Source of the DNA: an uncultured Fibrobacter sp.
GTDB lineage: Bacteria > Fibrobacterota > Fibrobacteria > Fibrobacterales > Fibrobacteraceae
Direction of reading: 5' to 3'
DNA length: 34,192 nt
Assembly: GCA_946405515.1 (NCBI GenBank)
Contig: CAMJHM010000018.1
Coordinates: forward strand, 1-34,192
In this document: piece by piece, positions 30-30,058 of the stretch
Numbering within the stretch: the stretch's first letter is position 1
How the letters are laid out: every line of letters begins with the position of its first letter
The notes under the pieces: generated by a model
The model's database searches: none
Told to the model about the DNA's origin: nothing
Seen by the model: only the letters and a program-made list of their open reading frames with translations
Position numbers and translations under genes: made by a program

Positions 30-238
30 CCATCAGAGAATCTAGAGGCTAGGATATAGGGGCTAGAGCGAAATATCACGGCTTCGCCGTCTGTTATTGA
101 CGCACGAAGTGCGTGATTCTTTTTCACTAGTCTCCCACCTAAAGGTGGCCATGCCCACATAAGTGCTAAAGCACTAAGTGGTCAAAGGTAGCCTCTATTC
201 TCTAGCCTCTCCCGCCTTTATATTCTATCTTTTATCCC
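30..238. repeat. Intergenic mosaic: two heptamer arrays and four mini-hairpins
   Basis: No gene is supported here. TAG recurs at 43, 50, 57 and 64, giving a 7-bp array. A second array in the opposite orientation has CTA or CTC at 195, 202 and 209. Between them are four compact perfect hairpins: 78-90 (arms ACGGC, loop TTC), 100-114 (arms ACGCAC, loop GAA), 135-148 (arms CCACC, loop TAAA) and 162-175 (arms AGTGC, loop TAAA). A TATATT box at 219-224 could be the -10 of aroD. Confidence 0.7.
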
Positions 239-1919: not shown

Positions 1920-3212
1920 ATGAATACGAAAATAGCGATTCTTCTTGGGTTCCTGGTCCCGGCTACAGCCGCCTTCGGCGGCACATGGACGCTCGCGGAC
2001 TGCCTCAAGCAGGCCAAAGAAAAGAGCCTCTCGCTGGAAACAGCCAAGCTCCGCGAACAGAAGGCGGACATCAGCGTAAAGCAGGCCAAGACAGGCAACC
2101 ACCCGACCGTGAGCGCAAGCATCCAGAACACACTCTACGACCACCCGTTCGTCGACGACGGCGACCACTACCGCCTGAGCCTCGGCATTTCCGGTTCGTA
2201 CACCATTTGGGATGGCGGGGCCACCAGCCTGAACGTCGAGGCAAGCCAGCTCTCTAAAGAGGCCACGGCCCTTTCGACCAAACAGACCGAACGTTCCGTA
2301 CAGGAAAGCGTCCTGAACGCCTACATGTCGCTGCTTGCCGCCATGGAAAACCTGCGCACGGCAAACGCCTCCGTCGATCTGGCCCAGGCGGAATTCGAAC
2401 ATTACGGCAAACTCTACGAGGCCGGGTCCATCACCAAGAAAGACCTCACCCAGAGCCAGTCCAACGTGCTGCAAAAGCAGGTGTCGCAACTCTCTGCCCA
2501 GCTTTCCGTCAACAGCGCAAAGACATCCCTCCGCCAGTTGCTGGAACTCGGCGAAAACGAAGAATTCGAGATTTCGGCGCCCGAAAGCAACATCGAGAGC
2601 CCCGACTCACTCCCCCCGTTGCCCTCGCTCGACGAATTGAGGAAGGTCGCCAAAGAATCCCATCCGGGGCTCAAGTCCGACAGCGTGTCTGTCAAGGCCG
2701 CAAAGAAAAACACCCAGGTTGCCGGGAAGGGCAGTTCCATCACCGTGACACTGGGAGCGAACTCCAGCACAGGGCTCCAAGCCTGGGAATCCGACCGCTA
2801 CGGCCGCCAACTCAAGAACGGCTGGCAGAACTCCGTGTCACTTGGCATCAACATCCCCATCATCGACGGCGGAGCCACCGACAACAAGGTGCTGCAGGCG
2901 CAGGTCACCGAGGCCGAGACGCAGATTAGCATGCAAGAAACTGCGAAAAGCATTGATAACAACATAGAAAAGCTGCTTATCAACGCCGTCAGCGCCGACA
3001 TGCAGTGGAAAGCCGCCGCGCTCCAGGTGCAAGCCGAAAACGAAGCCCTGCAGGTCGCCGAAGAACAGCGGAACGCAGGCGCCCTCACCTACACCGACTA
3101 CCTGACGCAAAAGAACAACCTCGAAAAGGCGCAAATCACGCAGACCAATGCCAAGTACACGAGCCTGCTCGCGAGGAAGATGCTGGAACTGTACCAGGGG
3201 AAGTTGGATTAG
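1920..3212 (+). CDS. TolC-family outer-membrane efflux protein
   Basis: A 430-residue outer-membrane channel component of a tripartite efflux or type I secretion system. A signal peptide (residues 1-20, ending ATAAFGG) is followed by two homologous halves of long amphipathic helices, as in TolC/OEP proteins. Each half carries a barrel-strand segment ending in a [W/I]DGGAT motif (SGSYTIWDGGAT near 95, NIPIIDGGAT near 318), a typical duplicated landmark. The start is the ATG at 1920, with an AGAGAGG box about 15 bases upstream. The reading frame stays open upstream into the tRNA gene, but that extension is an artefact. No membrane-fusion or inner-membrane pump gene is adjacent, so the transported substrate cannot be inferred. 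The stop TAG begins a heptamer array. Confidence 0.88.
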   Translation: MNTKIAILLGFLVPATAAFGGTWTLADCLKQAKEKSLSLETAKLREQKADISVKQAKTGNHPTVSASIQNTLYDHPFVDDGDHYRLSLGISGSYTIWDGGATSLNVEASQLSKEATALSTKQTERSVQESVLNAYMSLLAAMENLRTANASVDLAQAEFEHYGKLYEAGSITKKDLTQSQSNVLQKQVSQLSAQLSVNSAKTSLRQLLELGENEEFEISAPESNIESPDSLPPLPSLDELRKVAKESHPGLKSDSVSVKAAKKNTQVAGKGSSITVTLGANSSTGLQAWESDRYGRQLKNGWQNSVSLGINIPIIDGGATDNKVLQAQVTEAETQISMQETAKSIDNNIEKLLINAVSADMQWKAAALQVQAENEALQVAEEQRNAGALTYTDYLTQKNNLEKAQITQTNAKYTSLLARKMLELYQGKLD

Positions 3213-3274
3213 ACGAAAGACGAAAGACGAAAGACGAGAGAGGAGAGAGGAAAAGCTTGAGTCTTGAGCCTCAT
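3212..3274 (+). repeat. Heptamer array starting at the tolC-like stop codon
   Basis: Nine consecutive 7-base units begin at the last base of the TAG stop: GACGAAA three times, then GACGAGA, GAGGAGA, GAGGAAA, AGCTTGA, GTCTTGA, GCCTCAT. An AG dinucleotide recurs every 7 bases with one exception. Related GACGAAAGA words occur at 16628-16640. Confidence 0.85.
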
Positions 3275-15420: not shown

Positions 15421-16410
15421 CTACCCGCAAGTCGACTTCAAGTACTCCTTGGCGTCACAGTCCACGACAATGTCCTTACCAAGCAGGGCCCGGAGGCGTT
15501 CCAAATCCGGAGTTCCTTCTTTCTCGAATATGACAGCGGTCTTGAACCGGTCGCGATGCTTGAGCAAGAACTCAAGATTGTTCACGTCGGATTTGGGGAA
15601 ACCGTACCCGACAAAAATGATTTCGCGCGCATGAGCGAGGTAGTAGTCAGCCCGCGACCAAAGCAGGTTGAACAAGCTCCCCCGCAAAAAAGATTCCTTT
15701 GCATGCGCCATCGGAATATAGATGGGAGTGTCTTCGCTGTATATCGGGAAACTGCGGTCCTGCGGCTCCACTTGACAGACGTTCTTTAAGTCAAGTTCGT
15801 CGGTAGCGCCCTTGACCGGGAACCAGTTGAGCGAACCATGCAACTTGATCAAGTCAACCGTCTGGGGTGCCGAGACCCTGCGGGCAGAGCGGTCGGCAGG
15901 TTCAATGCGCACCCCGTAATCTACGGAAATCTGTTCCGAAAGTTCGGGATAGTTGGCAATGGCCGTCTCGATAAGCGTGTCGTAGTTGAAACTGAGCAAA
16001 AGCGTTTCGCGTTCACCCGATGCAGTGAGGTTCGCGCAGGACTTCAGGAAATTCTTCAGAATAAACGAAGCCTCGCCCTTCACGATTTCGTCACGGCGAA
16101 TAACACTCGCAATAAAACGCAGCAGTTCAAAACGCAACGTCGCACGATAGAGGCGGTCGCGTTCGCCCGGGAATATACGGGCCGAGAGAATAGACGTGGC
16201 CAACTGTTCTATGCCAAGATATTCGCGCTGTCCGTTACAAAGGCAAAGGAAACGCTGGCAATATTCCTTGAAATGCGGGAATTCGTCCGGAATGCCATCG
16301 GGAATCAGGGCATTCAAATCCTTCAGCGTGGGCATGCTCGGCAAGAAAGACTTGCTGAAACCGGAACCCAGCACAAAAACACGGCGATAAGTACTAGAAG
16401 AGGAGACCAT
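15421..16410 (-). CDS. SIR2-like (SIR2_2-type) NAD-binding protein
   Basis: A 329-residue cytosolic protein with SIR2-fold landmarks. VFVLGSGFSKSF (11-22) is the Gly-rich nucleotide loop. LLLSFNYDTLIE (137-148) carries the Asn-Tyr-Asp motif. LIKLHGSLNWF (187-197) holds the conserved His (about 191). EIIFVGYGFPKSDVNNLEFL (263-282) is the second nucleotide-contact segment. This arrangement is seen in SIR2_2 proteins, many of which are NADase effectors of anti-phage systems. It has no fused partner domain and no neighbouring defence gene, so a defence role is only a possibility. The ATG at 16410 is six bases from a TATATT (minus strand). The open frame upstream runs through repeat DNA and was discarded. 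Confidence 0.75.
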   Translation of the reverse strand: MVSSSSTYRRVFVLGSGFSKSFLPSMPTLKDLNALIPDGIPDEFPHFKEYCQRFLCLCNGQREYLGIEQLATSILSARIFPGERDRLYRATLRFELLRFIASVIRRDEIVKGEASFILKNFLKSCANLTASGERETLLLSFNYDTLIETAIANYPELSEQISVDYGVRIEPADRSARRVSAPQTVDLIKLHGSLNWFPVKGATDELDLKNVCQVEPQDRSFPIYSEDTPIYIPMAHAKESFLRGSLFNLLWSRADYYLAHAREIIFVGYGFPKSDVNNLEFLLKHRDRFKTAVIFEKEGTPDLERLRALLGKDIVVDCDAKEYLKSTCG

Positions 16411-16428
16411 GCTGGTAATATAAAAAAT

Positions 16429-16588
16429 GAGGTGTGAGGTCGCTGCGCTTTGAGCTTTGAGGTCGGCACTTCGTGCCTTTGAGGTATGAGGTGTGAGGTC
16501 GGGGCTAAAGCCCCTTTGAGGTATGAGGGAGTAGGAAGTGGTTAGGATATAGACGAGAGAACGCCGCTGCGCGGCTACAGACGAGAGG
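16429..16588 (+). repeat. Heptamer array with inserted variable hairpin cores
   Basis: GAG recurs every 7 bases within segments (16429 and 16436; 16452 and 16459; 16481, 16488 and 16495; 16518 and 16525, then TAG at 16532). Between segments the same flanks GAGGTC and TTTGAG enclose three different cores: GCTGCGC (16442-16448), GGCACTTCGTGCC (16465-16477) and GGGGCTAAAGCCCC (16501-16514). A fifth hairpin, GCCGCTGCGCGGC (16563-16575), lies between direct copies of AGACGAGAG (16551-16559 and 16579-16587). Confidence 0.85.
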
Positions 16589-16648
16589 AAAAAGTAAACA
16601 GTGATTAGTGGTTGGTGGTTAGGAAAAGACGAAAGAGGGAAAAGGTTG

Positions 16649-16680
16649 TCATTGCGAAGGGCGAAGCCCTGAAGCAATCT
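16649..16680. repeat. Dispersed TCATTGCGA..GAAGCAATCT palindromic repeat
   Basis: A 32-base element with the core GGGCGAAGCCC and imperfectly complementary arms (ATTGC and GCAAT). It matches 1-29 and, inverted, 33535-33566. Similar short palindromic repeats occur in many unrelated bacterial genomes. Confidence 0.75.
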
Positions 16681-16742
16681 ATGTCAAAAAGCCAGATTTC
16701 TTTGAGCAGTCAACGATGAGTTGTAAAACTACAGAAACTATA

Positions 16743-16822
16743 CCTCAAAGTGCGAAGCACGACCTCATTGCTCACCGCTCATTGCTCACTGCTCGTGCCT
16801 CGAGCCTGGAGCCTCGAGCCTA
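16743..16822 (-). repeat. Hairpin cassette and nine-unit heptamer array reaching the histidine-phosphatase stop codon
   Basis: Read on the minus strand, the array starts in the TAG stop (16820-16822). CTC or CTG triplets on the plus strand then occur at 16813, 16806, 16799, 16792, 16785, 16778, 16771 and 16764, an unbroken 7-bp register. It ends in the flank GACCTC of a fourth cassette, with core GTGCGAAGCAC (16750-16760) and other flank CCTCAAA (16743-16749). These are the same flanks as the three cassettes at 16436-16521, inverted. Confidence 0.85.
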
Positions 16823-17506
16823 AAACTCCAACCAGCCGGTTTCAAGGCCGGTCACGGGTACGATGCGACGGACATTCTTTTGCGCATCCGTCACCACAGC
16901 CATCCCTGTCAAAAAGTTCATCCAACGCTGCGGAGTAAAGCGCATCTTGCAAAAGTGAGTAAGGCACGGAACAGACCAAGCGTCGTGCGTCGCGAAAATG
17001 TTGAAGCGCGCATTGCCTTTTTCGAGCATCATCGCAAGCATCTCTTCGGAACGGCTCGCAAGCGGGCAGAACGCCTCGATTTCCTTGCGCGGATTGCCGG
17101 CCATCTCGTTCGCCAGCCACTCGCAAATACCCTCGTAAAAACCAGCACGCAGCACCTTCGTGAACTCGTCGTAGTCCTGGACAAAGAAATTGCCGAGACC
17201 ATCGAGAGGTTCCACATGGGCGTTCTCCAGCCCACGGCCCTTCGCGATAAACTGCGCAGTCTCTATGCAGCGCCCCACCGGGCTCGAAAAAAACACCATA
17301 TCACCATCAACAGGAATACAGCGCCCCAGAGCCAACGCCTGGGCGCGGCCGCGTTCCGTAAGGCCAACATGCGCACCATAGTCGGCATCGGTGGGCTTGA
17401 TATGGTCACGTTCGGCATGCCTCACCAAGAAAAAGACACGCTCGTCCGGAAGGATTCCCTTGAAGAAATCCTTGGCCTGAACAAAATCTGCGTTTTCATT
17501 GAGCAT
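16820..17506 (-). CDS. Histidine phosphatase family protein (phosphoglycerate-mutase-like)
   Basis: A 228-residue protein with the histidine-phosphatase core: FLVRHAERDH with the nucleophilic His (about 30) and Arg, LTERGRAQALALG, FSSPVGRCIETAQFI with the second Arg, and IFATHDAW with the acid/base His region near 174. It removes phosphate from a small molecule or protein that cannot be named from sequence. The RHAERD form and THDAW differ from classic cofactor-dependent phosphoglycerate mutase, so a glycolytic role is unlikely. The start is the ATG at 17506. A TTG one codon upstream is less likely. It is divergent from ackA, and its TAG stop begins a heptamer array. Confidence 0.85.
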   Translation of the reverse strand: MLNENADFVQAKDFFKGILPDERVFFLVRHAERDHIKPTDADYGAHVGLTERGRAQALALGRCIPVDGDMVFFSSPVGRCIETAQFIAKGRGLENAHVEPLDGLGNFFVQDYDEFTKVLRAGFYEGICEWLANEMAGNPRKEIEAFCPLASRSEEMLAMMLEKGNARFNIFATHDAWSVPCLTHFCKMRFTPQRWMNFLTGMAVVTDAQKNVRRIVPVTGLETGWLEF

Positions 17507-17560
17507 CAAGGTGAATTTAGAAAAAAATGCTATTATTTAAACAAAAGGACGGGATAACAT

Positions 17561-18774: not shown

Positions 18775-18809
18775 TAATGAGCTGTGAGCTATGAGCAGAG
18801 AGCTCATTG
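18772..18809 (+). repeat. Heptamer array starting at the ackA stop codon
   Basis: The TAG stop at 18772 is followed by GAG at 18779, 18786, 18793 and 18800, each 7 bases apart. Units read TAATGAG, CTGTGAG, CTATGAG, CAGAGAG, then CTCATTG. Confidence 0.85.
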
Positions 18810-18824
18810 GCCCTGCAAAAGATT

Positions 18825-18849
18825 AAAGGCTCCGCATCGCGGAGCCTTT
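18825..18849. terminator. Hairpin between convergent ackA and the Ig-like surface gene
   Basis: AAAGGCTCCGC (18825-18835) and GCGGAGCCTTT (18839-18849) form a perfect 11-bp stem with loop ATC. The flanking T and A tracts are short, and it may act in both directions. Confidence 0.75.
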
Positions 18850-18881
18850 ACTGTCTACATTCTACTGTCTACTTCCTACTA
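18847..18881 (-). repeat. Heptamer array starting at the Ig-like protein stop codon
   Basis: Read on the minus strand, the TAG stop (18879-18881) is followed by TAG at 18876, 18869, 18862 and 18855 and TAA at 18848, each 7 bases apart and together covering all three frames. Plus-strand units are TTTACTG, TCTACAT, TCTACTG, TCTACTT, CCTACTA. It overlaps the arm of the terminator hairpin. Confidence 0.85.
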
Positions 18882-30023: not shown

Positions 30024-30058
30024 GGCAATAGTTGGTGGTTAGTGGTTGGTGGTCAGGA
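30024..30058 (+). repeat. Heptamer array abutting the LysR start codon
   Basis: Units GGCAATA, GTTGGTG, GTTAGTG, GTTGGTG, GTCAGGA have TGG, TAG, TGG and CAG at 30033, 30040, 30047 and 30054, 7 bases apart. Similar words occur at 16601-16622. Confidence 0.8.

What the first reader, a model, noticed from the sequence alone, without database searches (positions are those of the whole stretch)
16436..16766. Four different hairpin cores inserted between identical flanks GAGGTC and TTTGAG
Within the repeat region between the SIR2-like and phosphatase genes, GAGGTC-X-TTTGAG occurs four times, once inverted. X is GCTGCGC, GGCACTTCGTGCC, GGGGCTAAAGCCCC or GTGCTTCGCAC. The flanks are constant and only the palindrome changes. 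This looks like a cassette site that accepts or swaps small palindromes, or a family diversified by recombination, rather than simple decay of one repeat.
Basis: seen in the sequence. Interest (0 to 1): 0.75.

Follow-up and report, generated by a model that had tools for sequence, protein, structure and literature searches.

The report
Swappable DNA mini-hairpins in Fibrobacter repeats
Between genes, Fibrobacter bacteria carry short repeat arrays studded with tiny DNA hairpins whose sequence can be replaced as a block while the flanking letters and the hairpin's structural rules stay fixed, which points to exchange of interchangeable hairpin modules rather than slow decay of one repeat.

Summary
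GAGGTC-X-TTTGAG occurs four times in the window (0.14 expected) and 80 times in this draft genome (7 for the reversed pattern). A stricter form is found in 18 of 20 sampled genomes of the genus and in none of 41 outside it.

X is almost always a hairpin. Read on the opposite strand (CTCAAA-X-GACCTC), most loops are GNA or GNNA closed by C-G, the published rule for exceptionally stable DNA mini-hairpins. Stems with two adjacent mismatches are nearly always GA/GA. This grammar recurs in species not used to find it, and in two further flank families, one present in many phyla.

Cores are exchanged. At two orthologous sites the core is replaced while about 120-150 bp on each side align without gaps. 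Most other orthologous elements keep their cores. Neighbouring elements almost never share a core.

Elements show no bias in strand relative to genes and no preferred intergenic type. Y1/RAYT transposase and reverse transcriptase genes are absent from some element-rich complete genomes.

Best reading: REP-like DNA hairpin modules in heptamer arrays, exchanged by recombination or template switching. The exchange step is inferred. New variant of a known kind.

The parts
16436..16454 (+). Class A element 1: GAGGTC-GCTGCGC-TTTGAG. On the other strand the core is GCGCAGC, a two-pair mini-hairpin with a GCA loop. Conserved in G063 and G067.
16459..16483 (+). Class A element 2: GAGGTC-GGCACTTCGTGCC-TTTGAG, the commonest core in the genome. 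In the G063 ortholog the core at this position is GCTCCCTTCGGTCGC (left side aligned only).
16495..16520 (+). Class A element 3: GAGGTC-GGGGCTAAAGCCCC-TTTGAG.
16744..16766 (-). Class A element 4, inverted: GAGGTC-GTGCTTCGCAC-TTTGAG.
16427..16531 (+). Heptamer array (TGAGGTN and relatives) hosting elements 1-3.
   Evidence: direct repeats and period-7 arrays
16556..16583 (+). Class C element: AGAGAAC-GCCGCTGCGCGGC-TACAGACG, inside AGACGAG heptamers. Same hairpin rule, different flanks.
16650..16679 (+). Class E element: CATTGCGA-AGGGCGAAGCCCT-GAAGCAATC (preceded by TTGT; TGTC tag). Widespread in bacteria.
16764..16821 (.). Further period-7 arrays (CTCATTG/CTCACTG, then CTCGAGC-like).
15421..16410 (-). 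Left neighbour: SIR2-like protein, 329 aa (Pfam SIR2_2). Not part of the element.
16820..17509 (-). Right neighbour: histidine phosphatase superfamily, branch 1, 229 aa. Not part of the element.

Best explanation
The region is an intergenic mosaic of 7-bp tandem arrays carrying exchangeable DNA mini-hairpin modules. Shown: the module is GTC-hairpin-TTT set into a GAGGTNT heptamer array. The stem sequence is free, but the loop (GNA/GNNA closed by C-G) and the permitted mismatch (tandem GA/GA) are constrained on one strand only. Cores are drawn from a pool shared within and between species, and a core can be replaced at an orthologous site while both flanks stay in place. Inferred: the hairpin folds when that strand is single-stranded (replication, repair or recombination), and cores move between array copies by short-tract gene conversion or template switching that uses the shared heptamers and GAGGTC/TTTGAG as micro-homology, so that no dedicated transposase is needed. 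The structural filter would be the stability of the folded DNA itself, which favours persistence or spread of well-folding cores. The arrays are probably neutral or mildly selfish DNA without a gene-regulatory role.
For: Hairpins: 97 of 135 cores pair fully (2.1 by shuffling) and 24 more have only a GA/GA interruption. One-strand rule: 34 of 53 distinct triloops GNA against 1 TNC; 22 of 24 double mismatches GA/GA; repeated in other species of the genus (34 of 52; 19 of 20) and in two other flank families. The rule equals the published one for extraordinarily stable DNA mini-hairpins (PMC4686876). Exchange: two orthologous sites with a replaced core and gap-free flanks (138/156 and 120/126; 147/156 and 124/126). 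Three of the four alleles at those sites also occur elsewhere in the genome that carries them, and GGCGCATTGCGCC has a second copy in G046. Neighbours share a core in 1 of 55 cases; core identity is independent of the outer flanks. No transposase of the expected type in complete element-rich genomes.
Against: The exchange mechanism is not observed. Only two clean replacements are in hand; about 25 orthologous elements keep their core (my count). Point changes and one-arm changes show that in-place drift also occurs. At one of the two sites the adjacent heptamers differ too, so the tract may be wider than the core. Independence from outer flanks could also come from fast heptamer turnover. RNA folding is not excluded by energies: GA/GA helps RNA even more than DNA, and the DNA parameters used do not model GNA loops. 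No replication-strand bias was found, which a lagging-strand model might predict.
Confidence: 0.55

Rival explanations
1. In-place diversification: each element keeps its place and its stem drifts by compensatory mutation, or by hairpin-templated correction of one arm from the other, under selection for structure. Cores are not exchanged.
For: Most orthologous cores are identical; point variants at one site (GGGGCTTTAGCCCC, GTGGCTTTAGCCCC, GGGGCGTTAGCCCC), TC-to-GA changes in one arm at two sites, and wobble intermediates such as GGCGCGAAGTGCC exist. Stem positions covary.
Against: At two sites the whole core, including its length, differs while 120-150 bp of flank on each side stay gap-free, and the alleles are members of the common pool. 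The pool is dominated by a few discrete cores rather than a continuum. Neighbouring copies do not resemble each other.
Confidence: 0.25
2. A dedicated enzyme (REP-type Y1 transposase, structure-reading recombinase or reverse transcriptase) inserts or swaps the hairpins.
For: Copy number varies from 0 to 121 between species. The features kept constant (flanks, loop, GA/GA, one strand) are of the kind an enzyme acting on single-stranded DNA could read. Known GTAG REPs are linked to RAYTs (PMC3733652).
Against: PF01797 is absent from G008, G010 and G072 (99-100% complete, 41-70 elements); PF00078 is absent from G010 and G072. No empty-site insertion or target duplication was seen. Other enzyme families were not surveyed.
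Confidence: 0.12
3. An RNA element: transcribed hairpins acting as terminators, mRNA 3'-end protectors or regulators, conserved for structure.
For: Hairpins with tandem GA pairs also fold well as RNA; some REP families in other bacteria are thought to act as RNA (PMC3733652).
Against: Placement in tandem, convergent and divergent gaps (58/22/21%) is close to background (54/20/26%), and strand relative to tandem genes is 33 to 23. Oppositely oriented copies share one spacer. No T run follows, and the scan finds no terminator at these sites. RNA energy rules give no reason for GNA triloops.
Confidence: 0.08

Closest known systems
CGTC-tagged REPs (PMC3733652; include Neisseria dRS3 and Rickettsia RPE-4/6)
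   Same: Short intergenic palindromes with a constant unpaired tag; stems and loops heterogeneous within a family; no known transposase; uneven spread between species. The window's class E element carries the TGTC variant of the tag and A-T pairs at the stem base.
   Different: Class A has two-sided tags (GAGGTC and TTTGAG), stems of 2-7 pairs, mostly 3-base loops, lies inside heptamer arrays, and its core is replaced as a block at orthologous sites.
GTAG REPs / REPINs with RAYT transposases
   Same: Many short hairpins between genes, constant tag next to a hairpin.
   Different: No GTAG tag, and no Y1 transposase in element-rich complete genomes.
Heptanucleotide tandem repeats (long simple sequence repeats; TAACTGA arrays of Beggiatoaceae, PMC4679880)
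   Same: Intergenic arrays with a 7-bp unit, several unit families per genome.
   Different: The arrays here host hairpin modules with variable cores; I found no such description in the passages read.
d(GCGAAGC)-type DNA mini-hairpins (Hirao, Yoshizawa; cited in PMC4686876)
   Same: GNA or GNNA loop and at least two G-C pairs; the smallest cores here are exactly GCGAAGC, GCGCAGC and GCGTAGC.
   Different: Known as a physical property of oligonucleotides; here it is the design rule of a genomic repeat family.

Membership tests
GTAG REP / RAYT system | GTAG (or near variant) tag next to the hairpin | tested here: not met
   Flanks are GAGGTC and TTTGAG
GTAG REP / RAYT system | Associated Y1 tyrosine transposase in the genome | tested here: not met
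   PF01797 absent from G008, G010, G072 and from the draft G000; a draft alone could miss it
CGTC REP (class A tested) | CGTC, TGTC or CCTC tag at one end | tested here: not met
   Class A has GGTC before the stem, and there the GNA loop lies on the other strand
CGTC REP (class A tested) | Stem 8-9 bp with A-T at the first two pairs, loop 4-5 | tested here: not met
   Stems mostly 2-7 pairs starting with G-C, loops mostly 3; criteria
CGTC REP (class E tested) | TGTC or CGTC tag and A-T at the first two pairs | tested here: met
   TTGTCATTGCGA...GAAGCAATC at 16646-16679; criteria
CGTC REP (class E tested) | Uninterrupted 8-9 bp stem | tested here: not met
   ATTGC/GCAAT is separated from the inner hairpin by GA and GAA
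DNA mini-hairpin rule | GNA or GNNA loop closed on at least two G-C pairs | tested here: met
   Majority of distinct cores in three flank families; rule
DNA mini-hairpin rule | Folding as single-stranded DNA in the cell | not testable with these tools
   Needs probing or NMR; the energy tables available do not model GNA loops
Heptanucleotide tandem repeat arrays | Head-to-tail 7-bp units between genes | tested here: met
   Period-7 arrays at 16480-16499, 16764-16821 and elsewhere
Intrinsic terminator | G+C-rich hairpin followed by a T run, placed downstream of genes | tested here: not met
   No site called here; placement and strand at background
Integron attC-like cassette site | Integrase that recombines folded single-stranded sites | not tested
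   No integrase survey was run; only the analogy that structure matters and sequence does not was considered

The most novel reading that the evidence does not exclude
Bacteria possess a general process, shared by unrelated repeat families and phyla, that swaps or rewrites DNA mini-hairpin cores between constant flanks by reading only the fold of one single strand (GNA/GNNA loop, optional tandem GA): in effect a structure-guided cassette exchange.
Probability: 0.17. Interest if true: 0.85.

Novelty: new variant of a known kind. Interest (0 to 1): 0.62.

Why it matters
How short bacterial palindromic repeats without a known transposase arise and spread is an open question stated in the literature (PMC3733652). 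Here many copies per genome, core replacement at orthologous sites and a one-strand structural rule make it testable whether such repeats propagate as folded single-stranded DNA. The recurrence of the same rule in an element found in many phyla suggests a common physical principle behind repeat families that have been catalogued separately.

Tried and rejected
RAYT/IS200-type transposase as mover: PF01797 absent from element-rich near-complete genomes. Reverse transcriptase: absent from G000, G010, G072, G021 and G046. Rfam: nothing but a tRNA in the window. Terminator or mRNA element: no T run, no strand or gene-orientation bias. Replication-strand bias by GC skew: none detected, p = 0.15. 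Tandem duplication as source of neighbouring elements: neighbours almost never share a core. DNA versus RNA energy comparison: uninformative for the loops, because the parameter sets treat nearly all triloops alike. Paper searches found no description of these elements in Fibrobacter or of this core rule in genomic repeats.

Full report
Observation. The four GAGGTC-X-TTTGAG copies are present as described, three on the plus strand (16436-16520) and one inverted (16744-16766), in a 409-bp spacer between a SIR2-like gene and a histidine-phosphatase gene. Shuffled windows give 0.14 matches on average. The draft genome holding the window has 80 matches against 7 for the reversed pattern. Across 61 genomes of the genus the count runs from 0 to 121. 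With a stricter pattern (TGAGGTCG...CTTTGAGG) matches occur in 18 of 20 sampled genomes of this genus and in none of 41 other genomes of the phylum.

Anatomy. The elements sit in 7-bp tandem arrays. The flanks are largely the array unit (GAGGTNT), but GTC belongs to the hairpin module: within arrays GAGGTC is followed directly by a hairpin in 80 of 86 cases, and the plain spacer GTCT never occurs among 850. The same spacer holds two further modules with other flanks: AGAGAAC-hairpin-TACAGACG at 16556-16583 (class C) and CATTGCGA-hairpin-GAAGCAATC at 16650-16679 (class E). An unbiased scan for hairpins in 0.65 Mb of this genome and 1.07 Mb of G008 recovered these flank classes without prior input, together with a double-hairpin class with nearly fixed cores (AGAATC-ACGCACTTCGTGCGT-CAATATAAG-ACGGCGAAGCCGT-GATATT). 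It also showed C(GAA)G to be by far the commonest loop.

Structural rule. In two genomes 97 of 135 cores pair fully from end to loop (2.1 expected by shuffling) and 24 more pair except for two adjacent G-A mismatches. Read on the CTCAAA-X-GACCTC strand, in three genomes with slightly relaxed flanks, loops are mainly GNA (34 of 53 distinct triloops; one is the reverse, TNC) or GNNA (8 of 17 tetraloops), and the closing pair is C-G in 64 of 70. Of 24 distinct stems with exactly two adjacent mismatches, 22 are GA/GA, nearly always at pairs 3-4. Stem positions 2-4 of the 13-nt cores vary with compensation. In the other genus genomes listed, not used to form the rule, 34 of 52 triloops are GNA and 19 of 20 double mismatches are GA/GA. 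Class C follows the same rule (15 of 19 GNA). Class E, found in Alphaproteobacteria, Chloroflexi, Bacteroidetes, Cyanobacteria, Rickettsia, Patescibacteria and others, does too (25 of 35 GNA, 23 of 26 GA/GA). GNA or GNNA loops with at least two G-C pairs are the published recipe for extraordinarily stable, nuclease-resistant DNA mini-hairpins, with a Tm of 78 C for GCGAAGC and a non-canonical G-A pair in the loop (PMC4686876). The shortest cores here are exactly such sequences. The binomial p-values overstate significance, because related cores are not independent.

Dynamics. Orthologous spacers were aligned between G000, G008 and G046 and, for the window locus, also G063, G067, G017 and others. 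Most orthologous elements keep the same core (about 25, by my reading of the alignments). Clean replacements exist at two sites. At G000 C8:39120 the core is GGGGCTAAAGCCCC, but in G046 it is GGCGCATTGCGCC, with flanks 138/156 and 120/126 identical and no gaps; G008 shares the G046 core and the left flank. At G000 C64:2700 GGTCGCTAACGCTCCC faces GCGACCTTCGGTCGC in G046, with flanks 147/156 and 124/126 identical, no gaps, and an unchanged neighbouring element. Here the adjacent heptamers differ too, so the replaced tract may be wider than the core. The window's second element is a probable third case, with GCTCCCTTCGGTCGC in G063, aligned on the left side only. Other changes are gain or loss of whole units, point changes, and TC-to-GA changes in one arm. 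Neighbouring elements share a core in 1 of 55 cases. Same-core elements do not share more of their outer flanks than chance (0.441 against 0.434 +/- 0.015), although fast heptamer turnover would give the same result.

What it is not. Placement relative to genes is close to background, and strand relative to tandem genes is 33 to 23. There is no detectable GC-skew bias (p = 0.15) and no terminator signal. Y1 transposase is missing from G008, G010 and G072, and reverse transcriptase from G010 and G072, all element-rich and 99-100% complete.

Interpretation. The best-supported reading is a family of DNA mini-hairpin modules hosted by heptamer arrays, with cores exchanged between copies. Shown: distribution, structural rule, strand specificity, shared pool, replacement. 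Inferred: folding as single-stranded DNA, and exchange by short-tract gene conversion or template switching. In-place compensatory drift clearly also happens but does not by itself explain block replacement by another pool member of different length.

Comparison. Class A resembles tagged palindromic repeats (REPs), above all the CGTC type, which is also heterogeneous in stem and loop and has no known transposase (PMC3733652), but it fails that type's tag, stem and loop criteria. The window's class E element meets the TGTC tag and A-T criteria but not the uninterrupted stem. The host arrays are of the known heptanucleotide-repeat kind (PMC4679880). I therefore call it a new variant of a known kind. 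The searches in the held library found no description of exchangeable cores or of the GNA/GA rule in genomic repeats; that is a statement about this library only.

Noticed in passing
window 98-120 (-); 42 copies of ACGCACTTCGTGCGT and 47 of ACGGCGAAGCCGT in the G000 and G008 stretches: Class B double hairpin (AGAATC-ACGCACTTCGTGCGT-CAATATAAG-ACGGCGAAGCCGT-GATATT) inside CTAGGAT-like arrays has nearly fixed cores, unlike classes A, C and E.
   Followed up: partly
L272-L351 (genome-contig scan): The CATTGCGA-core-GAAGCAATC element occurs in many phyla with variable cores that follow the same GNA and GA/GA rule; it looks like a TGTC/CGTC-tagged REP with an inner mini-hairpin.
   Followed up: partly
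class A cores, e.g. GCGACC-GAA-GGGAGC (L228, L266): Some GA/GA cores look like half-and-half hybrids of two perfect cores; the reciprocal hybrid, which would put TC/TC on the folding strand, was not seen. At two orthologous sites one arm differs by TC against GA.
   Followed up: partly
L090 (G063:C26), orthologous spacer: After two class A elements the spacer carries a series of A+T-rich inverted repeats of the form TTACATACTAA...TTAGTATGTAA.
   Followed up: no
L097 (G001:C13), orthologous spacer: About 1.4 kb, with what looks like an intact reading frame, lies between the two neighbouring genes in this species only. The encoded protein was not searched.
   Followed up: no
L127, L149, L180, L237: A dispersed unit of roughly 80 bp (GCGAGCTTGCGAGCTATACAAGACTTGCCAATTTATTGGC...) recurs next to class A elements.
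   Followed up: no
window 3211-3253, 18777-18804, 18849-18880, 30031-30053: Further period-7 arrays of other unit sequences in other parts of the window.
   Followed up: no
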